This document shows, piece after piece, positions 6,031-54,453 of a DNA stretch of 64,000 nt. This stretch comes from Echinarachnius parma (taxonomy: Eukaryota; Echinodermata; Echinoidea; Clypeasteroida; Echinarachniidae): NCBI GenBank assembly GCA_037951105.1, contig JBAMJV010011236.1, positions 1 to 64,000 on the forward strand, in the 5' to 3' direction. How positions within the stretch are numbered: the stretch's first letter is position 1; each line of letters starts with the position of its first letter. Below the pieces are notes generated by a model, which searched no databases, had not been told where the DNA came from, and was given only the letters and a program-made list of their open reading frames with translations. Both the position numbers and the translations under genes were made by a program.

Positions 6031-6219
6031 AAATTTGCGATGTCAAATTATCCGGTGGTGAAAGTCGTCTCCATTGCTTCATGCACAAAACATTCCGCCG
6101 GATAGAACAACGTACATCGCCTAAAATAACGCATTAACCGAACACGAAACGCATACAAACGGAGACGAGCGGATATAAATTTGGCTCTTCGTCGATCGTC
6201 CGTTAAAGTCATACCTGTA
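6031..6219. mobile_element. MITE family F, truncated copy
   Basis: Contains the family core TCAAATTATCCGGTGGTGAA, TCTCCATTGCTTCATG and ACAAAACATTCCGCCGGATA, shared with the copies at 6742-6999 and 61942-62168. The left terminal repeat is missing and the right side meets another element at about 6220. Confidence 0.65.
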
Positions 6220-6732
6220 AAGTGTCCAAATCCACGAAAATTACTTGGAGCTTCCTCGTTTCTCTTCTACCGTGTTGTTTAGCTTATGGTAAGAGAAGAA
6301 TAAAATAGGGTTTGATTTTTTCAAATGTCCCTTTAGTATGAAGATAATTATCATTGAAAATCATTATTTCTAAAGCGTTAATCAACGCAATTGAACAAAA
6401 GTACAATTGTCTTAGCTGAGAACGTCCGCATGCAGCACCCGTGAGAACATTCTGGAGATTGAACTTTGAGCCGAGCGAGTTCAAATTCCATGAATTATGT
6501 TCTACGTGTGTAAAAATACACGGGTGCGAATATCTCAAACGGATCATTCATTACTGCGACAATTCCATGACAAGCCATCAGTATTCGGTGATACAATTTG
6601 AACTCAATATTCGTTTTTTTCACTAGGTAAACAGTGTTCGTTTTCTTTCAAACTTTCACAAATCTTTCAATTGTATTTTACAATGATATTGATGTAGGAT
6701 TGAAGTCTCAAATATCTGACACTTTACAGGCA
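6220..6732. mobile_element. Possible TIR element (513 bp)
   Basis: CCTGTAAAGTGTC near 6220 and GACACTTTACAGG near 6732 form a perfect 13-bp inverted repeat, and the segment sits between two family F MITE sequences. No coding capacity is recognised, and no target duplication was seen with confidence. Confidence 0.4.
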
Positions 6733-6741
6733 TCACTTTAA

Positions 6742-7973: not shown

Positions 7974-9370
7974 CTAACTGAAATGTCCTTGAAATTATTG
8001 CAACGATGTGGCTTGTCGTGCGTTATTTGGTAAGAGATTCCACTCCGCCAGAGTTCGTGGTATGAACGAATATTTGTAGCAGTCCTTCTTGGTTGCGAGA
8101 CGTTTGAAGGAAAGAGCCGATGACTTCCTTGTTTAGATTCCCCCTGATGAGTCTGTCTGGTATTTGTCCGAGTCAATTTCAGCAGTGTGCTGTATTGATT
8201 TATACAAGAGGTTGAGTCTCGAGGTAGCCCGTCGATCTTCCAGGGGTTTCCATCCCAGTGTTGATATCATAGATGAGACGCTACTAGTTCTCCTCCAGTC
8301 CTTGCATACAAATCTGGCAGCTCTTCGTTGAACAGCTTCAAGTCTGCTTTTGTGTTCCTCTTTGTATGGGTCCCATACTGATGCAGCGTATTCTAGCTTT
8401 GGTCGGACCAACGTCTTGTAAGCTGTCTCTTTCACTTTGCGCGAGCAACTATAGAGGTTTCTCCGAAGCAGGCCCAGTACCTTGTTTGCCTTGGATGCAG
8501 TTGTGTATATGTGGTCTGCCCAGTTCAGTTTTGAGTTAAGCTCTACCCCAAGGTACGAGTGTTTCGCTATTGAGTAAAGGGGTGTTCCATTCATGGTGTA
8601 TTATGTTTCTTTTGCTCTCCGTTTGTGAGTAATGTGCATCACATGGCACTTGTCAATGTTGAATTTCGTCTGCCATTTTGCCTCCCAGGCGCACAAACGG
8701 TTAATATCCTGCTGTAGTGCCGTATTGTCAGCATCGGATTGGATCTCTCGGTATATAATGCAGTCGTCCGCGAACAGTCGCACTTGGGAGTCGACTCCCT
8801 TTGGTAAATCGTTAATGTATAAAATAAATAGTAGTGGGCCCAAAACAGTACCCTGTGGAACTCCTGATTGTACGTCCACGTGTTCGGATGAAGCCCCTTC
8901 CAGTACGACAGATTGCGTCCTTCTTGTCAGAAAATTATTTATCCAGGTGTGTATAGATCCTGTTATCCCTGCTTGGTTCAGCTTCAGAAGAAGCCTCTGA
9001 TGGGGGACTGTATCAAACGCCTTGCTGAAGTCTGTGATGACGACGTCTACTTGTCCTTGACGATCTAAGATTTCGGCGATGTCATGCACGGTCAGGGCAA
9101 GTTGAGTTTCGCATGATCTCCCTTTCCTGAAGCCATGTTGTTCTCCATTGAGGACGTTGTATGTCTCGAGATGTGTCATGATGTTTGTGTGGATTAAATG
9201 TTCCAATAGTTTACAGGGTATATATGTCAATGAGACTGGTCGGTAATTTTTGGGTTCCTTTCTTAAATATCGGCGTAATGTTGGCTTTCAACAAGTCCTC
9301 TGGCAATTCTCCCGTGTCGATGGATTTTTGAAAGATGTTCTTTAGCAATGGGGCCATGTTATGTGACATA
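7974..9370 (-). pseudogene. CR1/L2-like LINE reverse transcriptase, decayed
   Basis: The minus strand encodes most of a non-LTR reverse transcriptase. It starts inside the fingers (a PEDLLKANITPIFKKG pattern at about 9300-9260), has one frameshift near 9235, then continues with ENGEQHGFRKGRSC-like sequence. Motif A is DFSKAFDTVPHQRLL, then SGVPQGTVLGPLLF and the catalytic FADD box, so the polymerase aspartates are intact. Motifs of the thumb and C-terminal region follow (KYLGV-like, RPKLEYAASVWDPY, then FIPRTLAEWNLLP). From 9230 to 7974 the frame is single and broken only by about three nonsense codons (near 8597, 8130 and 7990). The tail ends near 7840 with a GAA-type simple repeat. The 5' part is cut off by the TIR element starting near 9369. 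Confidence 0.85.
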
Positions 9371-10257: not shown

Positions 10258-10261
10258 TTAA

Positions 10262-10662
10262 AACAGCCGTTTAAATACAAACGGGCGCTCTCTAAAAGCG
10301 CATTGGTTTCAACCTTTCTGTATCGAAAAATTTGCATGAGATGTTTTGTTAAAATAATGATTAAATAGAGAGATCATCAACAACTATTTAGAAACCTCTT
10401 TTGTAAATTTGTGAAAAGTATAAGCTTTTTTTTTATTGTCAACGGCTGGTTCAAAATTATCGAAGCATTGTGGGATCCCACAATAATTACAAATGGTTAT
10501 ATTTATGGATATTTTAGCCGTCTCTGAACCGATTTTGATCAAAGAAACTTGATTCTGTCATTAAAACTGTGTGCTCTTCCAAATTGTTCACTCAGTTGTT
10601 CATTAACTCACAAATTGTTTCCTGAAGCGCCCTCTATACCAAAACTGAACTACTCCCTTAAG
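10262..10662. mobile_element. MITE family B (TTAA-type), old copy
   Basis: The right end CCAAAACTGAACTACTCCC matches the family B terminus (consensus CCAAAACTCAACTATCCC, then TTTAA). The interior shares GGTTTCAACC, TTTTGTTAAAATAATGATT and CGATTTTGATCAAA with the copies at 15345, 16547, 18410 and 26184. The left end is eroded. It preserves the unoccupied form (single GATTAAAT) of the site into which a foldback element has inserted in the 16547-18707 copy. Confidence 0.65.
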
Positions 10663-14302: not shown

Positions 14303-15140
14303 TTAATATTTTATTTGCTCATTTTCATTTAAATAAATCATTAATACAAATACAATTGTAAGTGCTCCACAGACATGGCAGATAACACAATTTGTGAGAA
14401 AAAGATGGTTAGAATGTGGTCTCACGTTCTCAACAGTTACCATCTCTGACGGAATAATGATAATTGTTAAAATCGATAGTTTCACGCGGACGTCTAATTT
14501 AATGGAAAACGTGTCAATTCCCAAGCTGTCAGAAATGCAGCGTTTTAAATGAATCGAAGGCCAAATCTATCACCTTCCAGCAGATGGTCTCAAGTGATAT
14601 CTATACAAATTATGACAATACAACCAAGGTCATGGTATTTATTTGAAGTGCATAGTGCGGACTGTAAAGCGAAGCAGCACACACGGACCTCGAATTGAAT
14701 AGATGTCACGTAATACAGTAATTGGTGGATTATATGCCAGTCTGGCAGTCATAACGCGCCCGCTTGTCAACATGCAACTATACGATATTATGCCATATAC
14801 AATACGGTAACTTGTTCCTTCTTTGGGAAATAGGCTCACAAAAGAAAGAACAAGAACAAGACAGTGTACCTCATCGACGTGTAGGTGTTTTGCGCGAAAG
14901 CTTCTTCGTATAGAAAACGCCTTTTAGGTAATCATGCACGCTTATTGGCTAATCACGTGGATACAATGTCGATTAGTGTAGGATTTATATGGCGCCAGTT
15001 TAATCACATTAGTTGAAAAGATGGTGAATTTTTGTTGTTGTTGTCATTTGATAAAAAATATGATAAAATGCATAACACAGTCATAATATATTATTTAAAA
15101 TCATTCACATGAAATGAAACTCAGAGTTATGCAATTACTA
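14303..15140. other. Gene-free stretch, nothing recognised
   Basis: No coding exon, RNA gene or repeat was identified. Confidence 0.4.
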
Positions 15141-15142
15141 TA

Positions 15143-15303
15143 GGGTCCCCTTGCAGAGATACAATCGATTGTAAGTTACACTTGATTGTGAGTCAGCAAC
15201 TTTGCACGTTTCAGCCAATCAGATTCGCGCATTTAGAACACATGATCTGACTTACAATTAATTGTTACTGACAATCGATTGTATCTCTTTCTGCAACGGG
15301 GCC
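15143..15303. mobile_element. MITE with ATCGATTG terminal repeats (161 bp)
   Basis: The left end GGGTCCCCTTGCAGAGATAC, followed by AATCGATTGT, and the right end ACAATCGATTGTATCTC, then CTGCAACGGGGCC, are inverted repeats. The duplicate copy is at 16021-16181. No coding capacity. Confidence 0.75.
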
Positions 15304-15344
15304 AGGGTTATGACACAGCGTATTTGATGTATAGCGTGAAAGGG

Positions 15345-15535
15345 ATAGTTCAGTTTTGGTATAGAGGGCGTTTCAAGAATGATGTTTTGTGAGGTAATGA
15401 TAAACTGAGTGTCAAATCTGAAAGAGCATACAATTTATGATGACAGAATAAACTTCATTTGATCAAAATCGGTTCAGAAACAGCTGAAATACCAATAAAT
15501 ATATCCGATCTGAATAAACCTGGGATCCCACTAAT
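15345..15535. mobile_element. MITE family B, partial copy (repeated at 16223-16413)
   Basis: Begins AAAGGGATAGTTCAGTTTTG, then GTATAGAGGGCG, matching the family B terminus, and continues with the shared core GATCAAAATCGGTTCAG. It is cut off where the LINE reverse transcriptase sequence begins. The second copy belongs to the tandem duplication. Confidence 0.65.
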
Positions 15536-16546
15536 TTCACATTCATCATTACATTTAATTGATCAATATCCCTGTGTTTTAAAAATATACTTGTATCATC
15601 TGCAAACATTAACATTTTTAAAGTAGGTGAGTAGAGTGGCAAATCATTAATTACAAATAAAATGGGTCTTAAAGGGATAGTTGAGTTTTGGTCAAGAGAG
15701 TACAGTTTTGGTCAAACTAAATTTTAGTAACCAAAACCTGCACCATTACATTACAAACTAACAGTTATAACTCCACCATGCTCGAAAGGAATACAACATT
15801 TCAAATGACTAAGTAAAAAGCCTGTTATCATTACAAAAAAAGAGCTGTTAAAACTCAAGGCGGCGCTCTCTAAAAACTCGTTGGTTTCAACCATTTGAAA
15901 TAAAACATTGTGCATGTGATGTTTTGTTGATAGTGATTAGATGGTTACAGTCCGTTATTCCGAAGATTCGTTATTCCGAAGGTTCAGTTATTCCGAAGGT
16001 TCGTTATTCGTTATACTATAGGGTCCCCTTGCAGAGATACAATCGATTGTAAGTTACACTTGATTGTGAGTCAGCAACTTTGCACGTTTCAGCCAATCAG
16101 ATTCGCGCATTTAGAACACATGATCTGACTTACAATTAATTGTTACTGACAATCGATTGTATCTCTTTCTGCAACGGGGCCAGGGTTATGACACAGCGTA
16201 TTTGATGTATAGCGTGAAAGGGATAGTTCAGTTTTGGTATAGAGGGCGTTTCAAGAATGATGTTTTGTGAGGTAATGATAAACTGAGTGTCAAATCTGAA
16301 AGAGCATACAATTTATGATGACAGAATAAACTTCATTTGATCAAAATCGGTTCAGAAACAGCTGAAATACCAATAAATATATCCGATCTGAATAAACCTG
16401 GGATCCCACTAATTTCACATTCATCATTACATTTAATTGATCAATATCCCTGTGTTTTAAAAATATACTTGTATCATCTGCAAACATTAACATTTTTAAA
16501 GTAGGTGAGTAGAGTGGCAAATCATTAATTACAAATAAAATGGGTC

Positions 16547-18707
16547 TTAAAGGGATAGTTGAGTTTTGGTCAAGAGAGTACAGTTTTGGTCAAACTAAAT
16601 TCTAGTAACCAAAACCTGCACCATTACATTACAAACTAACAGTTATAACTCCACCATGCTCGAAAGGAATACAACATTACAAATGACTAAGTAAAAAGCC
16701 TGTTATCATTACAAAAAAAGAGCTGTTAAAACTCAAGGCGGCGCTCTCTAAAAACTCGTTGGTTTCAACCATTTGAAATAAAACATTGTGCATGTGATGT
16801 TTTGTTGATAGTGATTAGATGGTTACAGTCCGTTATTCCGAAGATTCGTTATTCCGAAGGTTCAGTTATTCCGAAGGTTCGTTATTCCGAAGGTTCGTTA
16901 TTCCGAGGGTTCGTTATTCCGAAGGTTCGCTATTCCTAAAACGAAATCGGGTTCGTTATTCCGAAGGTTCGTTTATCCGAGAAAAAAAATCGGGTTCGTT
17001 ATTCCGAAGGTTCGTTATTCCGAAGGTTCATTAGTCCGAAAATAAAATAGGGTTCGTTAATCCGAAAATTAAATCGGGTTTGTTATAATACTATAATTTG
17101 TGTTTTGTTTATTTAATTTACATCCTGCATTAACCCTAATAGGGCCGGGGGGGGGGGGGGGGGCATAATGGCCCCCCCCCCCTCCGCGATTTTTGTTATT
17201 GCTCCAAAACGCTGTAAGATGACGCGCCGCTGCTCCGTGACATTTTTCTTTCGGGTCTTGCGCACATTTTAAAACAAAAATTTCGAAAATCGGACATACC
17301 GTTACAAAGTCACGTGACCTTTTGTCTATGCATGTCAGCCCGAAAATCGCTCAATTTCGTGATTTGTGTACAAAAGATATGGAAATATCAATTTTCGTAA
17401 AATGAGGTTTATCATTGGTTATTCAGTGTTGTTTACATTTACATGTTGTTTTGGGGGTTCAAAATACTTAAATTATAGTTAGAAATAAAATAAACAACAA
17501 AAACAATAAAATACATAAGTTTAAAAAAACAAAGAAATACATAAGAAATTATCAAAACAATACAAAACATAAGGAAGAACCTGGCTCTTCCTAATTTTTT
17601 TGTCGTATTATTATTCCACATGCTCTAAAGAATATATGTAGTGAAAACCAGAGTTTAATTATGAATAATATATGATTTATGGGTAAAAATATGAATTTCA
17701 TGACTTATTTGCATAAATTACCATAAATATGCAAATTAATGAATTTTTCAAATTTAAAAAAAATTACCATTGTATTCTATACACTTCACTTATCATGCGT
17801 GCAAATTTTCACGGCGATCGGCCGCTCTGCGGCCGAGATCTTAGGGGGGGGGGGGGGGGGGGGGGCCATAATGCCCCCCCCCCCCGGCCTGCTGAAGACC
17901 TCAAATAGCCCGGCCCTTTTAGGGTTAAGCATACCCCTCCCCCTTTCCCTCCCTTGGCCAGACCAATCAAACATTTAAGTTCATTTTATCTCTTTATATG
18001 AAATTATAGCATTATAACAAACCCAAATTCATTTTCGGATTAACGAACCCGATTTCATTTTAGGAAAAGCGAACCTTCGGAATAACGGACCGTCGGAATA
18101 ACGAACTTTCGGAATAACGTACCCGATTTTATTTTCGGACTAACAAACCTTCGAAATAACGAACCTGATTTCATATTAGGAATAGCGAACCTTCGGAATA
18201 ACGAACCCTCGGAATAACGAACCTTCGGAATAACGAACCTTCGGAATAATGCAACAAATGTTCAGATTAACGAACCGTATTTCATTTTAGGATTAACGAA
18301 CACTCAGGTATACGAAATTTGCGTGTTCGGAATAACGAACCTTCGGAATAAAGAACCTTCGGAATAACGAACCTTCGGAATAACGAAGCGCACCCGATTA
18401 GATAGGGAGATAATTAACAACTATTTTAAAACCTCTTTTGTAAATTTTTGAAAGGAGGAAGCATTTTTAAAATTATTTTTAACGGCTGTTTCAAAATTAT
18501 CGAATAATTGTGGGGCCCGACAATTATTACAAATGGATATGTTTATGGATATTTCAGCCTTTTCTGAACCGATTTTGATCAAATAAAGTTTGTTCTGTCA
18601 TTAAAATTGTATATGCTCTTTCAAATTTGACACTCAGTTTTTCATTATCTTACAACAAAATTATTTTGTGTAGCGCCCTCTATACCAAAACTCAACTATC
18701 CCTTTAA
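16547..18707. mobile_element. TTAA-type element (family B) with internal foldback insertion
   Basis: Termini AGGGATAGTTGAGTTTTGGT and ACCAAAACTCAACTATCCCT are inverted repeats directly flanked by TTAA at 16547-16550 and 18704-18707. The uninterrupted reverse transcriptase frame contains this TTAA once (codons for S-I-L-R-P), so TTAA is the duplicated target, as for piggyBac-type transposases. The element proper is about 0.6 kb; the remaining 1.6 kb is a foldback element inserted at 16821-18395. No transposase is encoded. Confidence 0.85.
16821..18395. mobile_element. Foldback element with 16-bp minisatellite arms, 8-bp TSD
   Basis: The left arm is a tandem array of GGTTCGTTATTCCGAA-type units (16821-17090), with variants containing AAATCGGGTTCGTT. 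The right arm (about 18010-18390) is the same array inverted. The inner domain also mirrors: a G-run/CATAATGG/C-run block at 17148 and again at 17846, and AGGGTTAA-type sequence near both. GATTAGAT occurs at 16813-16820 and 18396-18403 as an exact 8-bp target duplication, and other family B copies have a single similar octamer there. Long tandem-repeat arms plus 8-bp TSD recall the TU foldback elements described from sea urchin. Confidence 0.85.
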
Positions 18708-19257
18708 AATGGAGCCTTGTTGAACTCCGCAAGTAATTGGTTACATGTCTGAACTAATAGATTTATAACTTACAAATTGATGTATATTTCTTAAATAACT
18801 TTTAATACCATACAAATGTAATTTTTGAAAAAAAATGTCATGATTAATATACTGTCGAAAGCTTTCCTAAGGTCTGAAAATAATCCTAAAAACGTTTCTC
18901 TATGTTCAAATGCATTATTTTACATTCAATAACAAATCAAAAACAGCTAATAAAGTGGAATGCTTCTCTCTAAAACCCAATTACCGAGCGTACAACATAT
19001 AATTTTTCCCCAAAAAATGTAATAATCGTACATTTATACATTTCTATAAAAAAAAAAGGAGAAAAAAATGTCAATAGTGAAATTGGACGATAATTGAAAA
19101 AAAAAAAATTCTTTTGCGCCATTTTTATAAATCGGAATTACTTTAGAAATCTTGCAGAGACTAGGTACAACAGCTCTTTGAAAGCAGAGATTAAAAATAT
19201 TGAACAATGGTATGGTTTACATAAAATATGAACTAATATCTTAATTGCTTGTCGATC

Positions 19258-19722
19258 AAAGCGGCGTATATTTTTTTTACACCACTGTTCGACATGTTCG
19301 CCCAAAACGGGCCAAAAACGCGCTGGTAAGCCAAGACTACAGTCTGCTGTATGCCATATAAATTATATGCAACAAACTCAGCGACCTTGCGATATCGATC
19401 TAGCGAAGACAAGTCCAAGGCCCGTCCAAGGGCGAGGGTGACCATTAATTAGTGGCTGATCTCGATGCTGACTACGACCACGACGATGAGACTAGGAATA
19501 TTGATCTACGCGTAGATACAATGCACTCACAGTCACCATGGTGTGTGAAACTACGATTTTATTGAGAAAATGGCTCGGCGTTTGATGCATAGAAATTGTA
19601 TCGCAGGCGCTAGTTGCATACAGCTAGAGCGCGTGCGCTAGTCTTGGGTTACCAGCGCGTTTTTTGGCCCGTTTTGGGCGAACATGTCGAACAGTGGTGT
19701 AAAAAAAATATACGCAGCCCGG
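19258..19722. mobile_element. TIR element with ~80-bp terminal repeats (465 bp)
   Basis: The left end GCGGCGTATATTTTTTTTAC, then ACCACTGTTCGACATG and CGCCCAAAACGGGCC, is mirrored at the right end (GGCCCGTTTTGGGCGAACAT, then AACAGTGGTGTAAAAAAAAT). It interrupts the minus-strand LINE reverse transcriptase between SPG and the next coding piece. No coding capacity. Confidence 0.8.
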
Positions 19723-19880
19723 TGATGTGCCATTTTTAAAAGATAAAACAACATCACTACTTTCTTTTTGGGTGATAGGTTTTACAAAGAAAGAATCAAG
19801 ATAGGAACCTGCAAGATATGAAGAATATAAGATATCAGTATCATCAATATTCAAAGAGATGTCCTTACCTTTAATAATTC

Positions 19881-26183: not shown

Positions 26184-26730
26184 TTAAAGGGATAGTACAG
26201 ATTTGGTCAAACTGAATTTAATTAACAAAAACTTGCACGATATCATTGCAAACTATTAGTTACAATTCCAACATGCCCGAAAGGTAGAAAAAAAATTGCA
26301 AACGGCTAAGTTAAAAAGCTGTTTTCATAATTAAAAAAAATAAGCCTTTAAAACGCATGAGGGCGCTTTCTATGAACATATTGGTTTCAACCATTTTTCA
26401 TGAAAAAATGTGAATGTAATGTTTTGTTAAAATAATGATTCAATAGAGAGATCATTAACAACTATCTTTAAACCTCATTGTTATATTTTCGAAAAAGTGT
26501 AGGCATTATTGAGATATTTTCTTGAATAAAATGTGAGACCCACATTTATACCAATCTGATATACTCATAGATATTTCAGTCCTTTTCTGAACCGATTTTG
26601 ATCAAATAAAGTTGATTCTTTCATTGAAATAGTCTGCTGCTCTTTCAAATGTTACACTCAGTTTTGCATTACCTCACCAAGCAATTATTTCTTGAAGCGC
26701 CCTCTATACCAAACTTAACTATCTCTTTAA
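26184..26730. mobile_element. MITE family B (TTAA-type), complete copy (547 bp)
   Basis: Begins TTAAAGGGATAGTACAG, then ATTTGGTCAAAC, and ends CCTCTATACCAAACTTAACT, then ATCTCTTTAA, giving inverted ends with TTAA at both sides. The interior shares GGTTTCAACCATTT, TTTTGTTAAAATAATGATT and CCGATTTTGATCAAATAAAG with other family B copies. It has no foldback insert. Confidence 0.75.
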
Positions 26731-29336: not shown

Positions 29337-29864
29337 GTATAAATGTGTACAAAGTCAGTGCAATGAGTTAGCAAATATCACCTTACTTTTTCGCTCAATG
29401 GACGTATCAGATCACAACAATACACATTTTATCAACCATTTATCAATTCTTGCACATGCCGAGATTCCTTTACCTGTTTACATGGATCTAGTAACATTGT
29501 CCAAATCCCCCAAAACATTATTTTAAATCTAGAGATTCTCTTATACAGTGTTGTATCCGTATTACCAATAGAAGCATGAAACAGGTTTTGTTTTTTTTTA
29601 TTTCCCCTTTCGTTAAAAGGATATTTACGATCGAAGTGTTCGGATTTTTCATCATCCACTGACAAGTTTAACTGTGTACAAAGTCAGTGCAATAAGTTAG
29701 CAAATACCACTTTGCATTTTCGCTCATTACTTGGCCATACGATATCCATTTAACGTAAAATGTTACGACATTACTCAGAGGACATATCAGATCTCGACAG
29801 TACACATTTTATCAACCATTTATCATCTTTTGCACATGTCAACAAAGTTACGAGATCCCTTTAA
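29337..29864. mobile_element. MITE family A copies (one partial, one near-complete)
   Basis: A partial copy at 29337-29470 shares GTACAAAGTCAGTGCAATGA and ATATCAGATCACAACAATAC with the family. A nearly complete copy follows, from GGATCTAGTAACATTGTCC at 29483 to ACAAAGTTACGAGATCCC, then TTTAA, at 29864. After it the terminal GTTACGAGATCCCTTTAAGG is repeated once more. Confidence 0.7.
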
Positions 29865-33665: not shown

Positions 33666-34061
33666 TTAAAGGGACTTAGTAACATTGTCCAAATCCTCAA
33701 AATAAAATTGTAATTCTAGCGGTTCCTTTATACCTTGTTGTATTCGTATTAACAATAAAATCATGGGACAGCTTTCGGTTTTTCAAATTTCCCTTTCATT
33801 ACAAAGATATGTATGATTGAAGTATTTAGATAAGAAAATCTCCGGGCGAGATTTTCATCCCTGTACAAAGTGAATGCAGTGAGTTGGTGAATATCACCCA
33901 ATATCACTTTGCATTTTCGCTCATTACTTGGCCATACATTGTCCATTTGACCTGAAATTTTCACACAATACCCTGAGGACATATGAGATAACAACAGTAT
34001 ACATTGCATCAACCATTCATCAGTTTTTGCACATCTCAACAAAGTTACTAGATCCCTTTAA
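33666..34061. mobile_element. MITE family A, complete copy (396 bp)
   Basis: Begins TTAAAGGGACTTAGTAAC, then ATTGTCCAAATCC, and ends GTTACTAGATCCCTTTAA. The terminal repeats are about 18 bp with TTAA at both edges. It is, base for base as far as I can read, identical to the inverted copy at 40497-40892; both even contain the same 93-codon open frame, which is incidental and not a gene. Confidence 0.85.
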
Positions 34062-36399: not shown

Positions 36400-38760
36400 A
36401 TCAGTCAGGACGTAGAGTCGAGGGGAACCGGTGAGGTGTCCCATTAATTGCTGATTGTGGCATTGCCGATTGAGGTGAGCCCATTATCTCCTGTATAAGG
36501 ACTTGATTAGGGAGGTCAGACTCCGCCCAGGTTTTGCGCCATTCTCCCTTTAGGTCGAACTCTTTAGAGACTTCGCAGAAGACCAAAAGGTTGTCCGTGA
36601 TTTAAGGCGCATGTTGGGTAGGTCCTCTAGGTCCTCATGGATAGGTAGGTCTGGATTGGTGGAGGTGCGGCGAATTTCCTTGCGCATTATCTCCTGTCTG
36701 TGTACTCGAGGGGGAACAATGTGTGAGAGAGAGCAAGAGTGCCAGTAATTATTCTCATAGCACAGTATAAGATAACATATACACGTACCTTATTGGTATG
36801 ACAGCTCTCTTCACACACTGGTGAGCAGTACTATGCAACAGAGTACACTAGTGCTATGCAGACCGTTCAAAGGTTGTGTGTGCCAGAACACCAGCTGTTT
36901 CCTGCTAGCGAGATAATGTTGACTCTGGTCTTCAGTTTACAACCTCTTCAGATGTTCATGATAGGTGAGGCTGTGGTCCAGGGTTACTCTAAGTTATTTG
37001 GGGAACTCTTCATGCTTGACTATTTTGCCACAGAAGGTGACCTTCAGTTCTGTGTTTGCTTGTCGGTTAATGATGGGGAAGGCAGTGGTTGTAGTCTTTA
37101 TAGGATTGGGACGAAGGCGCCAGTAGGTGAAGTAGTCCTCCATCTTCTTCATGTCTATGGTGAGGGTTGTGCTAAGACAAAGGACATTGAAATCGGTGGA
37201 TTGGATAGCTAATTCAGGATCAACTGCATAGGCAAATTTCCTGGGAGTGGTCTCCGGCATGTCGCTTACATAAATGTTGAAAAGCATCAGGGCCAAGACA
37301 GATCCTTGAGGGAGGCCGTCGTTTAGGGTTCTAGTTGTGCTTGTTTGTCCTCCAAGTGAAACTCTGAATCTTCTTTTGCAGAGTATGGAAGCGAGGATGC
37401 CCATGGTTGTCTGATACTTGAAGAAGCGGGAGGCTTTGTGCAGCAAGCCACATCTCCATACAGTGTCATTGGCTAATGAGAGGTCAATCAGTGCTACACC
37501 TGTTTTAAGAGCGCGCTGATATCCTGCCTCTATTAATGTAGTGATGGCTAAAACTTGATCGGAACAGCTCATTTTTGGTCTGAAGCCTGCTTGCTCCTTT
37601 GGTAGCACAGGTTCTACCAATGGGCTAAGCCTGACCAGAAGGAGACGATCGAACAATTTGTACGATGTGCACAGAAGAGAGATGGGACAGTAGCTTGCAT
37701 GGTCGTTCACAGGTTTTCCTGGTTTATGGATCGCAATCACTCCGGAATAGTGGACGCAGGTGAAGAATGTGGCCAGTCAGCCGCTATCTCAAGGTTCTTC
37801 AGGAATTCTGGGCATATTCCATCAATGCCAGCTGATTTCCCTGATTTTGTGGATAAGAGGCCAATGTCGACATCTTCTCTAGCATAAGGTTTTTACAAGT
37901 GGGGAAGTCTTTGCTGATATTGAGTAGGACTTGGAAAGGTTCTTCTTGACTTCTTTACGTGATGTCTTGGTAGAAGGAACTTTGGAAATAAGGAGCAGGC
38001 GTGAAGCAACAGCATTTGCTGTTAGTTTAGAAGGTTGATGTTGAACCGGGGTTGCTGCTATAAGATGTCGAAGGAGGTTCCAAGCCTTCCGACTCGAGTG
38101 TGTAAAGTTGAGATGTTCTACAGTCTCTTGCAAGCGCTTTTGTCTAGCAGTTTCAGGGGAATACAAGAGTTCTATTGCAATATCTGGATCACGAGTGGAT
38201 TCGTACAGCTTGTGGAGCTCTTCTGATTCTGGCAGCCAGCGAGGTGTGTAGTCTTTACGAAAGCCACGAGGGATGTGTTTCTTGGCAGTGTCATTGAGAA
38301 GAAGGATTGCAGAAAGGATGTGTAGCTTTCGGGGACTGGTTCAAGATTGGTGATTTTCTCCTCCACGTCATCTGTAAAGGGTTTCCAGTCAGCTTTTCTA
38401 AAGTTTCATCGTGATTGGGGCTTCGATTGGATAAGAGGGATCTCTACACCAATATGGATCAGAGCTGGACGATGTTGACTATGAGGTAAGAGAGGGAGTA
38501 TCTTGCGAGATGCATGGGCGGCCATTCTGTCAGGTCATGTCTTAGGTAGGTAGCAAGATACTTGGCGTGATGCACGGCCGCGATGAGCTTGAAGCCATAG
38601 ACGCGAAAGCTAAGATGCACACGTCTTATCACGTATATGGGTTTCTTGTAGAAGAATAACGTCGATGTCAAGATCCTTTGCTGATCTAGCGAGGTAGTCA
38701 CTTTTTGCACGTGACATACCTTCCGCATTAATTTGGTATATATGCCCAATAATCAAATAC
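36400..38760 (-). pseudogene. Degenerate LINE (endonuclease + reverse transcriptase)
   Basis: Minus strand. Near 38740-38640 the sequence reads AEGMSRAKSDYLARSAKDL and then DIDVILLQETHI, the opening of an AP-like endonuclease. A linker follows (RKAWNLLRHLIAATP at about 38090). The reverse transcriptase at 37740-36994 shows IAIHKPGKPVNDHASYCPIS, EQAGFRPKMSCSDQVLA, VALIDLS (motif A), NDGLPQGSVLALMLFNIYVS and a mutated catalytic box FAYAVDPELA, where the first Asp of YADD is now Val. The C-terminal part runs on to about 36400 with many frameshifts. It sits in the centre of the 9.3-kb inverted-repeat element. It is enzymatically dead because of the motif C change and the breaks. Confidence 0.85.
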
Positions 38761-39799: not shown

Positions 39800-41590
39800 T
39801 GGGTGGTTGCTAGGTAAAATATTGTTGCTAGGCAACATGATAATATAAGATAATCTACAGTATAATATGTGTGTTGCAACAAAAAGGTTTACCGCTAACC
39901 CAACTCGATGTAAGCCTATAAAGCAAGACAGTACCCAGGAAATGTGAAAGAATCTTCCAAATATATAATACAATGTATGGTTGCTAGGCAGAATGATGTT
40001 GCTAGGCAACACACCAGTTTCCATGAATAATCTTAAGTATTTCAAATGTATGTGTAATCAATGTTAACTGAGTACACAAAGTAAAACAGGCATATAGAGC
40101 AGGAAATTGCTAAGGAAGGGTAAACAATCTACTAAATTAAAGTCAAAATGGTTGCTAGGTCAAATGTTTTTGCTAGGCAACATAATGGTCTCAATGGATA
40201 GTCGCATGTGTTGCACCATCCATGTACTTTGTTTTATGCTTTGTTGCTTTATAATCTTAATATAACATACATATTTTTACACATAAACAACGTATATTGT
40301 ATTTTACAGATAGATTCAGATTAATTGTACAGATAATGACATTGGAAATTGCATACATAGGAAAATGCACACATTTGAAAGATAGTAATTTTACTGTAAA
40401 AATGTGTAAAAAACAAAATGCACCAAAGCAGTCAATTTACCATGTCTCTGGATTAAGTTTTAAATGTTGTAATAGCTAACATAATAGTTTATATTATTAA
40501 AGGGATCTAGTAACTTTGTTGAGATGTGCAAAAACTGATGAATGGTTGATGCAATGTATACTGTTGTTATCTCATATGTCCTCAGGGTATTGTGTGAAAA
40601 TTTCAGGTCAAATGGACAATGTATGGCCAAGTAATGAGCGAAAATGCAAAGTGATATTGGGTGATATTCACCAACTCACTGCATTCACTTTGTACAGGGA
40701 TGAAAATCTCGCCCGGAGATTTTCTTATCTAAATACTTCAATCATACATATCTTTGTAATGAAAGGGAAATTTGAAAAACCGAAAGCTGTCCCATGATTT
40801 TATTGTTAATACGAATACAACAAGGTATAAAGGAACCGCTAGAATTACAATTTTATTTTGAGGATTTGGACAATGTTACTAAGTCCCTTTAATGCCAATC
40901 ATTTGGAATGTTGCATCATCAAATGTAAATACTATATACTCAACATACTGAAGGTAAATACAGCAAAAGGCCACAGAAATGTAAAGAACCGTCTTTGAAT
41001 AAGTCAAATGGGTGGTTGCTAGGTCAAAAAGTGTTGCTAGGCAACGATATTGGTCACTATGTATCATTGTGAGTATTTCATATGTGCTGCACTATCAATG
41101 TTTACTATGAATTCAAAGAATTAAAAGCCATAAAAGCAGAAAAGTGAATAACCGTGCAAAAGAAGCTCTACATATTAGTTAAATGCGTGGTTGCTAGGTA
41201 AAATGCTGTTGCTAGGCAACAAGAAAGTCTACATGGATACCCTTTAAATGTTTACTATGGGTTGCACCATCGATATCAATCGATGTACATGTATGCTTTG
41301 TGTCTTATTTCATAATAATGAAATTGTATATTTGTAAAATGCCACAGAAATGTACAGAATCATTTTTGAATAAGTAAAATGGGTGGTTGCTAGGTCAAAA
41401 AGTGTTGCTAGGCAACGATATTGGTCACTATGTATAATTGCGAGTATATCATAAGTGCTGCACTATCAATGTTTAGTATACAAAGATTTAAAAGCCATTA
41501 AAGCAGAAAAGTGAATAGCCGTGCAAAAGAAGCTCTAAACTAGTTAAATGCGTGGTTGCTAGGTAAAATGCTGTTGCTAGGCAACAAACT
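39800..41590. repeat. X-box satellite, right arm (7 units, dimeric)
   Basis: Each unit holds GGTTGCTAGGTAAAAT-type sequence followed by the palindrome GTTGCTAGGCAAC. Units start at about 39804, 39979, 40150, 41013, 41190, 41384 and 41553, i.e. every 169-194 bp. From 41013 on, two unit types alternate (AAGTCAAATGGGTGG and AGTTAAATGCGTGG), giving a higher-order dimer of about 365-370 bp. The array is interrupted by a family A MITE (40497-40892). A further unit lies at 43277-43310. Confidence 0.85.
40497..40892. mobile_element. MITE family A, complete copy identical to 33666-34061
   Basis: TTAAAGGGATCTAGTAAC at the left and GTTACTAAGTCCCTTTAA at the right, with TTAA at both borders. It is the exact reverse complement of the 33666-34061 copy, so transposition or gene conversion was recent. 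It lies inside the X-box satellite array. Confidence 0.85.
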
Positions 41591-42881
41591 AGATGGATCT
41601 TCGACTGCGCGCAGTCGAAAATGATGCCTCCGCCATTACGCAATTTATTTATATCAAGCCCAAATCAACATATACTGTACACTGAATTAATTCTGTACAC
41701 TGAATTAATTCTGTTAACTCAATTTTGATGGTACTCTGCCTTTTAGATCTTGACGTATCACAATTATGAGCTATCAGTGACCTTGACCTTTGCCCTCATG
41801 ACCCCAAAATCTAATGACTACAATTGTTCCCTAAGATACATTCAGGTATCAATTTGGATTGAAATCTGATATTCAGTTCTTGAGATTTCCAATCTCAAGC
41901 TACTTTTACATATAATGAGCCCTGTGTCCTTTGACCTCATGACCCCAAAATCTAATCAGATCATTGGCCCCCCAAGATACATACATGTACCAAGTTTGGT
42001 CAGAATCCGTCAATCCGTTCTTGAGATAACGCGATCACGAGCTATTTTTGCATATATAATGAGCTCTGTGACCTTTGACCTTTGACCTCATGACCCCAAA
42101 ATCTAATCAGATCATCGGCCTCCCAAGATACATACATGTATCAAGTTTGGTCAGAATCTGTCAATCCCTTCTTGAGATAACGCGATCACGAGCTATTTTT
42201 GCATATATAATGAGCTGTGACCTTTGACCTTTGACCTCATGACCCCAAAATCTAATCAGATCATCGGCCTCCCAAGATACATACATGTACCAAGTTTGGT
42301 CAGAATCCGTCAATCCCTTCTTGAGATAACGCGATCACGAGCTATTTTTGCATATATAATGAGCTGTGACCTTTGACCTTTGACCTCATGACCCCGAAAT
42401 CTAATCAGATCATCGGCCCCCCAAGATACATACATGTACCAAGTTTGGTCAGAATCTGTCAATCCCTTCTTGAGATAACGCGATCACGAGCTATTTTTGC
42501 ATATATAATGAGCTCTGTGACCTTTGACCTTTGACCTCATGACCCCAAAATCTAATCAGATCATTGGCCCCCCAAGATACATACATGTACCAAGTTTGGT
42601 CAGAATCCGTCAATCCGTTCTTGAGATAACGCGATCACGAGCTATTTTTGCATATATAATGAGCTCTGTGACCTTTGACCTTTGACCTCATGACCCCAAA
42701 ATCTAATCAGATCATTGGCCCCCCAAGATACATACATGACCCAAGTTTGGTGAAAATCCGTCAATCGGTTCTTGAGATAACGCGATCACGAGAACGGGAC
42801 GTACGTACGTACGTACGTACGTACGGACGGACGGACAACCCGAAAACATAATGCCTCCGGCTACTTCGTTGCGGAGGCATA
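41587..42881. mobile_element. Satellite-bearing element inserted in the X-box array
   Basis: A neighbouring X-box unit (41213 onward) continues directly from GGCAACAA to AAGTCTACATGGATACC. Here these parts are separated by about 1.3 kb, so the segment is an insertion. Its ends carry ATGATGCCTCCGCC (left) and GCGGAGGCAT (right) as short inverted repeats, and a CGACTGCGCGCAGTCG palindrome lies at the left edge. The right end contains (CGTA)n and (CGGA)n at 42800-42836. The interior is the DR1 satellite. No coding capacity. Confidence 0.75.
41770..42795. repeat. ~150-bp satellite with DR1 nuclear-receptor motifs
   Basis: About seven tandem units of 149-151 bp. Five in a row (starting 42068, 42217, 42366, 42517 and 42668) contain GTGACCTTTGACCTTTGACC, i.e. 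on the minus strand three AGGTCA half-sites each spaced by one base. The other parts of the unit, such as CAAGATACATACATGTACC, TTGAGATAACGCGATCACG and GCATATATAATGAGCT, are nearly identical between units. The first two units are more diverged. Confidence 0.9.
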
Positions 42882-44520: not shown

Positions 44521-45240
44521 TTAAAGGGACATACTAACATTGTCCAAATCCTCAAAATAACTTGTTTTATTTGTATTAACAATAAAATCATGGGACAGGT
44601 TTCGGTTTTTCAAATTTCCCTTTCATTACAAAGATATGTACGATCAAAGTATTCAGATAAGAAAAACTCCGGTGGAGTTTTGAAACCGTGTACAAAGTGA
44701 GTGCGGTGAGTTAGTGAATATCACTCATTACTTGGCCATGCAATGTCCAAATGACTTGACATTTTCACACAATACCCTGTGGACATATGAGATAACAACA
44801 ATATACATTGCATCAACCATTCATCACTTTTTGCACATGTCAACAAAGTTACTATAGATCCCTTTAAGTGACATTGTCCAAATCTTCAAAACATATACTT
44901 GGAACTCTAGTGGTCCTCTCATACCTTGTCATATTCATATTAACAATAACAAAACACGGTACAGGTTTCGGTTTTTCAAATTTCCATTTCGTTCAAAAGA
45001 TATTTACGATTGAAGTGTTCAGATGTTAAACTGTCTACGGGATAATTTAAGCCGTGTACACAGTAAGTGCAATGAGTTAGTGAATATCACTTTGCATTTT
45101 TGCTCATTTCTCGGCCCCAAAAAATCCAATTAACGTGAAATTTTCACACATTAGTTTGTGGACATATCAGATCACACCAATATACATTTTATTAATCCCT
45201 CATCACTTTTTACACTTGTCAACAAAGTTACCATGGTTAC
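44521..45240. mobile_element. Two MITE family A copies head to tail
   Basis: The first copy (44521-44867) has both ends: TTAAAGGGACATACTAAC and GTTACTATAGATCCCTTTAA. The second (44868-45240) starts at GTGACATTGTCCAAATC and ends at ACAAAGTTACCATGG with eroded termini. Both share CGGTTTTTCAAATTTCC and TTTTCACACA with the family. Confidence 0.75.
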
Positions 45241-45889
45241 TAATTTAGTAACTATCAATTAAATTATCAATATCAACGTATAATGAGATCCATTATGAGT
45301 AATACCGTCGGTTCGTGGAAAAAAAAAATAAAGTGTAACATTTTATTTATTTTAAATTTGAATATCGTCATGGACGGGTAGAAAGGAGAACACAGTTGAG
45401 AAATTAAACATGAACATTATTTTGGCACCAGTATATAGTTAGTGCAAGCGATGCATTTCGTAATAATCACGCGAAAGGCATCAATCTTGTTGGCATGCAG
45501 GCTTGTATTTTAAGCTTGATGGCATTCAAGCGTGATGCATCGTAAGAACTGAACGAACAGAATGATGGAATAGTTTTAAGGTGAACGATGTTTTCATATT
45601 ATTATTTCGATAGGAGGATATCGACTGAAACATATTCTAGGCAGGCATTCACTAAAGGATGTTCATGTTAGCCATGGTTTAAAACTACGGAGCGACATCG
45701 AGAAAAAAAGTGTATTCTACTTAAAATGTCGAAGCAACACATTTTGCTAAATAAACGCATCAAATTAAGGTGTATGTTCTCAGATGGTGATTTTTAATTC
45801 GTGACAATGGTTAGCAAGCATCAATGGCGGAGTCATAATAAATATAGCAAATGCAATTTCCACTACTTATCTACAAGCAGCATCTAGTA
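45241..45889. other. Gene-free stretch; second copy of the spaced duplication
   Basis: Holds the repeat described for 43926-44520 (here 45377-45511). Nothing coding was seen. Confidence 0.45.
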
Positions 45890-46232
45890 ACATTGTCCAA
45901 ATCCTCAAAATCCGATTGGAATTTTAGCAGTTCCCTCATACCTTGTTGTATTCGATTTTTAGAATTTCCCTTTCGTTAAAAAGATATTCAAGATTGAAGT
46001 GTTCTGACGGTAAACTATCCACTGGATAGTCGTAACCGTGGACAAAGTCAGTGCAATGAGTAAGTGAATATCACTTTCCATTTTTGCTCATTACTCGGCC
46101 ATGTAACATCCATTTAACTTGAAATGTTCACACAAGACCCAGTGGAGATATGAGATATAATATTACATTGTATCAACCATTCATCACTTTTTGCACATGT
46201 CAACAGAGTAATACTATATAGATCCACTGGCG
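45890..46232. mobile_element. MITE family A, copy with eroded ends
   Basis: Starts CATCTAGTAACATTGTCC and ends ATGTCAACAGAGTAATAC, then TATATAGATCC. The interior carries the family core (AAAGATATTCAAGATTGAAG, TTTTTGCTCATTACTCGG). Confidence 0.7.
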
Positions 46233-51065: not shown

Positions 51066-51994
51066 ATAATTATGATTATTTAACGACGTTAGGTTTTTTC
51101 GCATTTGTACAATTTTGATGACATCGATTTGAGTTACAACTAGCAACATACATAATTTTCGACATCTTATTTCTAAAAGTCTCCATTGGAGACTTTCAAC
51201 TATGTGCAAAGCTAGTCCAATGAGTTAGCAAATATCATATGACATTTATTTACGATGGAATTTTCATACATCACTCTGCGGCATATTAAATCAAAGAAAT
51301 ACATATGACATCAACACTTTGTCATTTTTATTTGTTTTGCACAAGTAAATTAAGTTACTAGATGCCTTTCAGTCAACTCTTCACCGATAACTGCTGATCA
51401 AGTATTTACTTCAAAAGTGTTCTTAAAAAGAAAAATGAAATGCTAAGTGTGGGCGCCAAGACAAATTCAAGTCGCCATGCTCGCGGACGCTCGTTCTGGC
51501 GCTACATGCAAATGTGTTATCTGATCCAACCTGACGTCTCCATGGCCATGACCGTGAAGGCCGCGACAGTTTATTAACCCCTCATTCTCTGATCTTGCTG
51601 AAGTATATTGGGAACGCGAAATGACCTTGCCTTTACACGCTATATTTGGACATGTATTTAATATGCATCTAACGTGTGTAATGCAGAATCTCTCTCACCC
51701 TTTCGGCATTTTTTCTTTCCCTTTTCACTCTCTCATCGAAGCCCCATACACTCTATAGATAAGTGTTAGACATTCTTAATGTCTTATTTAAACTATCCAT
51801 CATTAAATAAACAATCTACAGTCTTTCTTGTTTCGATGAGGGACTTTCCCTTCGACCATGCATATCATTCTGTAATAGTGATTAAAATAATTATCGCGCC
51901 TCTTCCTCTGGTACATAATAGGGGTTTTTATCGTTCAACAACGTGTACATGGTATAAGTCATGATAAGTGCATGTTTGAGTCGCAGTAAAAAGA
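51066..51994. other. Intron-like stretch with a decayed family A MITE
   Basis: Positions about 51155-51370 keep weak family A similarity (AGTCCAATGAGTTAGCAAAT, AAGTTACTAGATGCC). The rest shows nothing recognisable. Confidence 0.5.
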
Positions 51995-52228
51995 AAATTA
52001 CAGATGGACTGAAGTGTTCAGATTTGTATTTATCCACTGGAAAGTTATAACTGTGTACAAAGTCATCGCAATGAGTTAGCGAATATCACTGTGCATTTTC
52101 GGTAATTACTTGGCAATATAACGCGATATCTTCACACATATTTACTCAGTGGACATATCTGACCACAACAATATACATTTCACCAACCATTCATCACGTT
52201 TTGCACATGTCAACAAGTTACTAGAGCT
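51995..52228. mobile_element. MITE family A, partial copy
   Basis: Shares TGTACAAAGTCATCGCAATG, AGTTAGCGAATATCAC and TTGCACATGTCAACAAGTTA with the family. The left half is missing. The right end is joined to a family H MITE. Confidence 0.65.
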
Positions 52229-52614: not shown

Positions 52615-54453
52615 CGTATGGCAAGGCGTTTTCATTTTTATTCCTATTTCTTGATAGCAATTACCATTGCTTAACAACAGAAAATAATTTCTTGATATCA
52701 AGAATTCATTTCTTGATATCAAGAATTGAATTCTTGATATAAAAAATTGTTATAGTGATTGATTTCGTGCGCGAAAGTATTGCACAAATTTATTTGGATT
52801 TCGAGCTCAAAAGTAGTGCAGAAATTCACAGTTGAATTCGAACGCAAAAGTAATGCAGAAATGCATTCTGATTTCGAGCTCAAAAGTAGTGCAAAAATTC
52901 ACAGTTGATTTCGAGCTCAAAAGAAGTGCAGAAATTCATAGTTGTTTTCGAGCGCAAAAGTAATGCAGAAATTCATTCTGATTTCGAACGCAAAAGTATT
53001 GCACGAATTCATGCTGAGCGGTGCGGTGTCGAAAGTCAATGTATCGCGAGTATTCAACTAATGCAAGAATTAATTTTAAGATATGTTGCCAGTTTGCAGT
53101 GCATTGAATGTCTCGGTGATTTTCCTTGTAGCAAATATTTCTTTGATACTATTTAAACATATGTTTATTTAGACCATTTATACATGTTGAATTGAAAATG
53201 TAGGACGTGATTTGTTTCTGGTTTAATCACTTGTTATAAAACATACGAATACGCGTCTTTCAAAAACGTAAAACGGCAACATATCACGAAATCATTTCGT
53301 GATATGTTGCCAATGGCCGTTGCGCAAACCTGTTGTAAAGATTGTCCCGTGTGCAATAATATGTCCACGTTTTTCTGAATAAATAATTTTATATTGTACT
53401 AAGTCATGTTAGTTGAAATAAAAATGTCAGATGTGATAATTTTCCAGAAAAAATCTTCTAAACAGACTTACAAAACACGCGTTGTAAAAACATAAATTGG
53501 CAACATATCACGAATTCATGCCACGTGCACAGAAGTCATCATTGAAATACACCACGTGGCATGAATTCGTGATATGTTGCCAATTTATGTTTTTACAATG
53601 CGTGTTTTGTAAGTCTGTTTAGAAGTCTTTTTGCTGGAAAATTATCACATGTGACGTTAATATTTCAACTAAAATACTAAGTACATTTTAAAATTAATTA
53701 TGCAGAAAAAAACGTGGACATATTTATTGCACACGGGACAATCTTTACAACAGGTTTGCGTAACGGCCATTGTGTTTCGTGATATGATGCCGTTTTACGT
53801 TTTTGAAAGACGGGTATTCGTATGTTTTATAACAAGTAATTAAACTAGAAAAAAATCACGTCCTACATTTTCAATTCAACATTTATAATTGGTCTAAATA
53901 AACATATGTTTAAATAGTATCAAAGAAATATTTTGCGTTCAAAATCAGGATGAATTTGTGCACTAGTTTTGCGCTCGAAATCAACTGTGAATGTTTGCAC
54001 TACTTTTGATCTCGAAATCAGAATGAATTTTTGCATTACCTTTGCGTTCGAAATCAATTGCGAATTTGTGCAATACTTTTGCGCTCGATATCCAAATAAT
54101 TCTTGCTATATCAAGAATTGAATTTGTACGATCAAAAAATGATTTCTTGATATCAAGAATTGAATTCTTGATATCAAGAAGTGAATTATTGATATCAAGA
54201 AGTGAATTCTTGATATCAAAAACTGAATTCTTGATATCAAGAATTGAATTATTGATATCAAGAAATGATTTCCTGTTGTTAACAAACGACAATTCTTGAT
54301 ATCAAGAATATAATTCTTGATATCAAGAAATGCATTCTTGATATCAAGAATTGAGTTCTTGATATAAAAAAAAAACAATAGAATTCTTGATATCAAGAAT
54401 TGAATTCTTGATATCAGGAAATATGAATAAATGTTAAAACGGCTTGCCATACG
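52615..54453. mobile_element. Foldback element, ~850-bp inverted arms
   Basis: The centre of symmetry is at about 53540, where ATATCACGAATTCATGCCAC and its inverse GTGGCATGAATTCGTGATAT face each other. Going outward, both arms hold the same domains: an inner unique part (AAATTGGCAACATATCACG, TGTTGTAAAGATTGTCCCG, ACATATGTTTATTTAGACC); a tandem array of about 36-bp units (ATTTCGAGCGCAAAAGTAAT, then GCAGAAATTCA); an outer array of TTCTTGATATCAAGAATT units (larger on the right); and ends with CGTATGGCAAG. No transposase. The layered tandem-repeat arms resemble sea-urchin TU or fly FB foldback transposons. A clean target duplication could not be read. Confidence 0.8.

What the first reader, a model, noticed from the sequence alone, without database searches (positions are those of the whole stretch)
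15536..19880. Three-level transposon nest with exact target duplications
A LINE reverse transcriptase is interrupted inside the CGVPQGSILGP box at a TTAA. The inserted element carries AGGGATAGTT terminal repeats and is itself interrupted by a foldback element bounded by an exact GATTAGAT octamer. Family B copies elsewhere (10262, 26184) show the empty octamer site. Removing both inserts with one TTAA rejoins S-I-L-R-P-I-L in frame. This gives relative dating (LINE older than the TTAA element, older than the foldback), and it proves TTAA target use for a family that has no transposase here.
Basis: seen in the sequence. Interest (0 to 1): 0.7.

Follow-up and report, generated by a model that had tools for sequence, protein, structure and literature searches.

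The report
Transposons nested three or four deep
A dead retrotransposon was hit by a small DNA transposon, which was hit by a foldback element that probably holds a fourth element, so the order of the hits can be read off; it is a clear but ordinary piece of repeat DNA.

Summary
The nest is real. A LINE reverse transcriptase (minus strand) is split at a TTAA (16547-16550 / 18704-18707) by a non-coding element with AGGGATAGTT ends. That element is split by a 1575-bp foldback (16821-18395) flanked by an exact 8-bp repeat, GATTAGAT. Two related copies carry a single, drifted octamer there (GATTAAAT, GATTCAAT).

The left part of the nest is tandemly duplicated (15136-16009 and 16014-16887, 872 of 874 bases alike), after the foldback arrived. 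The foldback's centre holds a 791-bp element with TTAA on both sides and CCCTAA(T/A)AGGGCCGGG ends, a probable fourth level.

The classification lead needs correcting. TTAA plus terminal AGGRR is the published signature of T2-MITE/Kolobok elements, whereas piggyBac ends mostly begin CCC. So the innermost element, not family B, looks piggyBac-like. A second AGGGA family in the window has TTAA at 11 of 14 readable ends.

Dating by nesting is sound and routine. The genome-wide test could not be run: the genome search gave no answer in 13 tries. Verdict: a new example of known kinds, low interest.

The parts
16410..16546 (-). LINE reverse transcriptase, part after the insertion: RPILFVINDLP ... 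FADDTSIF
   Evidence: Open frame; aligns to RT 8601-9287 from residue 149, 22.7 bits against at most 20.0 for 200 shuffled queries. Pfam: no match. Left limit approximate, where family B similarity ends.
18708..19260 (-). LINE reverse transcriptase, part before the insertion: NYRPISL, SDLRKAFDSI, CGVQQGSIL
   Evidence: Motifs in order but in different frames, with stops; aligns to RT 8601-9287 up to residue 149, 20.8 bits, equal to the best of 200 shuffled queries. Pfam: no match.
16547..16550 (.). TTAA target duplication of family B, left
18704..18707 (.). TTAA target duplication of family B, right
16551..18703 (.). Family B element (Kolobok/T2-type MITE by its ends) with AGGGATAGTT terminal repeats; about 570 bp without the foldback and one octamer
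   Evidence: Ends; halves match the complete copy at 26184-26730 at 75-76%; alignment
16813..16820 (.). GATTAGAT, left copy of the foldback's target duplication
18396..18403 (.). GATTAGAT, right copy of the foldback's target duplication
16821..18395 (.). Foldback element, arms of a 16-bp tandem unit CGTTATTCCGAAGGTT in inverted orientation
   Evidence: Inverted arms, tandem arrays, 10 units left in + and 11 right in - orientation at up to 3 mismatches
17130..17928 (.). TTAA-flanked inner element (17134-17924, 791 bp) with CCCTAATAGGGCCGGG / CCCTAAAAGGGCCGGG ends, 15 of 16 alike: piggyBac-like ends, probable fourth level
15136..16009 (+). Tandem duplicate of 16014-16887 (872 of 874 alike), joined by a 4-bp filler GTTA at 16010-16013; carries the first 67 bp of the foldback
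16219..16409 (-). Fragment of another family B copy, right end only, next to the LINE piece (tandem duplicate at 15341-15531); outer flank TGAA
26184..26730 (+). Complete family B copy with TTAA at both ends and a single octamer, GATTCAAT (26437-26444)
10260..10661 (+). Left-truncated family B copy, TTAA at the right end, single octamer GATTAAAT (10359-10366)
19261..19718 (.). Another inverted-repeat element within the same LINE; no clear target duplication seen
   Evidence: Arms of 58 nt, 98% complementary; 80 bp at 96% by self-comparison

Best explanation
This is a stack of successive insertions by ordinary transposons. First a LINE copy inserted and at some point decayed. Second, a non-autonomous Kolobok/T2-type MITE (family B) was pasted into a TTAA in its RT region by a transposase encoded elsewhere, duplicating the TTAA. 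Third, a foldback element with 16-bp tandem-repeat arms inserted into family B, duplicating 8 bp (GATTAGAT). Fourth, a TTAA element with piggyBac-like CCCT...AGGG ends probably inserted into the foldback's centre. Separately, after the third step, 874 bp reaching into the foldback's first 67 bp were duplicated in tandem with a 4-bp filler. Shown by sequence: the boundaries, the duplicated target sites, the RT pieces that meet at the same residue, the single octamers in two relatives, the duplication in this assembly. Inferred: the transposase families, and that the inner element is an insertion. The order of the inner element and the tandem duplication is unknown.
For: Ends and target sites; in-frame join with one TTAA; RT alignment broken at residue 149 on both sides; family B relatives run through the octamer; second AGGGA family with TTAA at 11 of 14 readable ends; T2/Kolobok signature in PMC6004289 (passages); piggyBac ends in PMC4625184 and PMC10813416 (passages).
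Against: No transposase for family B, the foldback or the inner element was found in the window: 24 of 24 stop-to-stop frames of at least 120 aa were scanned with Pfam and gave only RVT_1 and weak matches below cut-off. The RT pieces are short: the right one does not exceed the best shuffled query, a second RT of the window (36994-37776) gives only 16.9 bits at best, on the right piece, and Pfam finds neither piece. One family B end is TGAA and 3 of 14 family C ends are not TTAA. The foldback and the inner element have one copy each here, so their target duplications rest on one case each.
Confidence: 0.85

Rival explanations
1. The 874-bp duplication is an assembly artefact (two haplotype pieces laid end to end), not a real tandem duplication.
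For: Two differences in 874 bases would also fit two alleles, and the break lies in a 16-bp repeat array that is hard to assemble.
Against: The junction holds a 4-bp filler, GTTA, that is not present at that point in either flank, as is common after real break repair (general knowledge).
Confidence: 0.35
2. The inner TTAA-flanked 791 bp is the foldback's own middle domain, not a later insertion.
For: Only one foldback copy is in the window, so no copy without it could be compared; foldbacks often have a middle domain of variable make-up (PMC4079207, passages).
Against: It has its own inverted ends (15 of 16) exactly next to TTAA on both sides, with 30 and 72 further bases between it and the inverted arms at 17099 and 18001.
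Confidence: 0.25
3. Family B is a piggyBac-type MITE.
For: TTAA target, shared by piggyBac and Kolobok.
Against: Its ends begin AGGGA, the AGGRR motif of T2-MITE/Kolobok, not CCC.
Confidence: 0.08
4. The octamer and TTAA repeats are chance matches.
For: TTAA occurs 539 times in 64000 bases, and the window is repeat-rich (16 of 62409 positions match at the octamer spacing).
Against: They lie exactly at the element ends, and relatives and the RT frame give the matching uninterrupted sites.
Confidence: 0.02

Closest known systems
T2-MITE / Kolobok superfamily (Xenopus; PMC6004289, passages)
   Same: TTAA target duplication, AGGRR terminal motif, short non-coding copies: family B (AGGGATAGTT) and family C (AGGGAYYTAGTAAC)
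   Different: No transposase seen here; beyond the terminal motif no sequence relation to the Xenopus families was tested
piggyBac superfamily (PMC4625184, PMC10813416, passages)
   Same: The inner element: TTAA on both sides and CCCT ends
   Different: 791 bp, non-coding (longest stop-free stretch 72 codons); family B does not fit
Foldback elements, such as Tetris (PMC4079207, passages); sea urchin TU elements (recalled; that paper names a 1983 sea urchin foldback report)
   Same: Long inverted arms made of tandem repeats; 8-bp target duplication (Tetris 8-10 bp)
   Different: Unit of 16 bp against about 220 bp in Tetris; the relation to TU elements was not tested
Nested transposon clusters used for relative dating (PMC2517846, passages)
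   Same: Older elements interrupted by younger ones; relative age read from the nesting
   Different: One locus here, not a genome-wide analysis

Membership tests
Kolobok / T2-MITE (family B) | TTAA target duplication | tested here: met
   5 of 6 independent readable ends TTAA, one TGAA
Kolobok / T2-MITE (family B) | Terminal AGGRR motif (AGGGA) | tested here: met
   AGGGATAGTT at both ends of the nest copy; AGGGATAGTA and AGAGATAGTT at the ends of 26184-26730; motif from PMC6004289. The right end of the 10262 copy has drifted
Kolobok / T2-MITE (family B) | Mobilised by a Kolobok-type transposase | not testable with these tools
   None among 24 frames of at least 120 aa in the window; whole-genome search not answered (13 tries)
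piggyBac (family B) | Ends that begin CCC | tested here: not met
   Ends begin AGGGA; piggyBac ends from passages
piggyBac (inner element 17134-17924) | TTAA on both sides and CCC-type ends | tested here: met
   one copy only
piggyBac (inner element 17134-17924) | Transposase, or relatedness to an autonomous piggyBac | not testable with these tools
   Non-coding, longest stop-free stretch 72 codons
Foldback element | Long inverted arms made of tandem repeats | tested here: met
Foldback element | Constant target duplication over several copies | tested here: inconclusive
   8 bp in one copy; no other complete foldback copy seen in the window
LINE (non-LTR retrotransposon) | Reverse transcriptase motifs in order | tested here: met
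   Motifs in order and aligned to a window RT on both sides of the insertion; Pfam alone found nothing
LINE (non-LTR retrotransposon) | Clade | not tested
   Pieces too short and broken

The most novel reading that the evidence does not exclude
Two unrelated TTAA-using transposon types, Kolobok/T2 and piggyBac, form separate levels of one four-level nest. In the same genome a T2-like MITE (family C) moved very recently: two copies are identical over 396 bp in unrelated flanks, so a working Kolobok-type transposase with AGGGA ends should exist there.
Probability: 0.4. Interest if true: 0.35.

Novelty: new member of a known kind. Interest (0 to 1): 0.2.

Why it matters
It gives a relative order for several events at one locus and corrects the lead for the TTAA family from piggyBac to Kolobok/T2. 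Finding the Kolobok-type transposase with AGGGA ends in this genome would settle the class. The mechanisms and the dating method are routine.

Tried and rejected
Genome-wide copies: the genome search 'own', the same pattern 13 times, never answered.

Pattern scans of viral contigs for family B and the foldback, and one of genome contigs for the foldback, found no exact match; these collections are viral and prokaryotic and may leave out the window's own genome. An 18-base family C end matched one contig, L001, which has the 18 bases but not the rest of the element: taken as chance.

Rfam: no match in the window at gathering thresholds. Paper searches by letters: the family B end gave 0 papers; others (35 papers, 20 listed; 7 papers) gave listings on other subjects, which I did not open. 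The library holds open-licence papers only. One search (Kolobok, piggyBac, TTAA, sea urchin together) gave 0.

Considered and rejected: family B as piggyBac (ends), and chance for the octamer and TTAA. The clade of the LINE was not pursued.

Rows left out of counts: of 14 matches to C33666 I scored the 7 that reach both ends and left out 44867-45231, 45885-46219, 52054-52225, 51256-51369, 29400-29457, 29346-29382 and 6317-6358. For family B, the ends at 15669 and 15341 are tandem copies and were not counted as independent.

Full report
On the minus strand, 18708-19260 and about 16410-16546 carry reverse-transcriptase pieces in the right order: NYRPISL, SDLRKAFDSI and CGVQQGSIL on the right side, RPILFVINDLP and FADDTSIF on the left side. 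An RT of another LINE in the window (8601-9287, Pfam RVT_1 3.8e-34) aligns to the right piece up to its residue 149 and to the left piece from residue 149, so the insertion falls in the QGS(I)LGP box. Each alignment alone is weak: 20.8 bits on the right, equal to the best of 200 shuffled queries, and 22.7 on the left, against at most 20.0. A second RT of the window (36994-37776) gives no more than 16.9 bits, on the right piece only, and Pfam finds neither piece. The evidence is the order of the motifs and the break at the same residue. Joining 60 bp of each flank with one TTAA gives PITCGVQQGSILRPILFVINDLP in frame, with a stop just before PITCGV. The motifs on the right side lie in different frames, so the LINE is broken well beyond this insertion.

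Family B. The insert runs from AGGGATAGTT at 16551 to its inverted copy ending at 18703, between TTAA at 16547-16550 and 18704-18707. The complete relative at 26184-26730 has TTAA at both ends. The left-truncated relative at 10260-10661 has TTAA at its right end, with a slightly drifted terminus, and the fragment at 16219-16409 has TGAA. That makes 5 of 6 independent readable ends. PMC6004289 (passages) gives T2-MITEs a TTAA target and a terminal AGGRR, and links them to Kolobok. piggyBac ends mostly begin CCC (PMC4625184 and PMC10813416, passages). Family B is therefore best called a Kolobok/T2-type MITE. A transposase was not found in the window: 24 of 24 stop-to-stop frames of at least 120 aa were scanned with Pfam and gave RVT_1 in three (one just below its cut-off) and two weak matches below cut-off. 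Split or shorter coding pieces would be missed.

A replicate of TTAA use. A scan for TTAA-flanked inverted 14-mers led to a second family, C (about 396 bp, ends AGGGA(T/C)(C/T)TAGTAAC). Of 14 matches to C33666, 7 reach both ends; 4 of these 7 have TTAA on both sides, and 11 of 14 ends are TTAA, the others TTAC, TTAG and TTAT. Two copies, 33666-34061 and 40497-40892 (inverted), are identical at 396 of 396 bases in unrelated flanks (63 and 52 of 200 alike), which points to recent movement.

The foldback. 16821-18395 has inverted arms of a 16-bp tandem unit between exact GATTAGAT octamers. In two family B copies without it the alignment runs through with a single octamer, GATTAAAT at 10359-10366 and GATTCAAT at 26437-26444. 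These differ by one and two bases from GATTAGAT, not surprising for copies 73-86% alike.

(a) 15136-16009 and 16014-16887 are a tandem duplication, 872 of 874 alike, with filler GTTA. An assembly error is not excluded. (b) Inside the foldback, TTAA at 17130-17133 and 17925-17928 enclose 791 bp with ends CCCTAATAGGGCCGGG and CCCTAAAAGGGCCGGG, the signature of a piggyBac-type element and so a probable fourth level. (c) The same LINE holds another inverted-repeat element at 19261-19718, without a clear target duplication.

Interpretation. The most economical account is a series of ordinary insertions: LINE, family B, foldback, and then the inner TTAA element and the tandem duplication in unknown order. 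Reading relative age from such nests is established (PMC2517846, passages). Genome-wide confirmation was not possible: the genome search gave no answer in 13 tries (listed under Tried and rejected). The host was not identified; that it is an animal is inference from the repeat types. The finding is sound, needs one change of family name and gains a probable level and a duplication, but it is ordinary.

Noticed in passing
33666-34061 and 40497-40892: Two copies of a T2-like MITE (family C), identical over 396 bases, inverted to each other, in unrelated flanks, both at TTAA: a sign of recent transposition.
   Followed up: partly
44521-45231: Two family C copies in the same orientation abut at a TTAA (44864-44867); the second lacks its AGGGA end.
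   Followed up: no
6203-6741: Another TTAA-flanked element, 24-bp inverted ends 92% alike, beginning AGTCATACC; its next bases resemble family C.
   Followed up: no
15136-15320 and 16014-16198: A short element with inverted repeats (137 aligned positions at 73%) that begins near GGGTCCCC, within the tandem duplication.
   Followed up: no
19261-19718: Inverted-repeat element (58-nt arms, 98%) in the same LINE, between a TSPG-like and a GFD-like stretch; no clear target duplication.
   Followed up: partly
41950-42708: A repeat at steps of about 150 bp: ATCTAATC with the same context recurs six times.
   Followed up: no
53153-53913: TTAA-flanked inverted ends at two nested spots (53153/53913 exact over 14 bases, 53223/53843), suggesting a long palindrome.
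   Followed up: no
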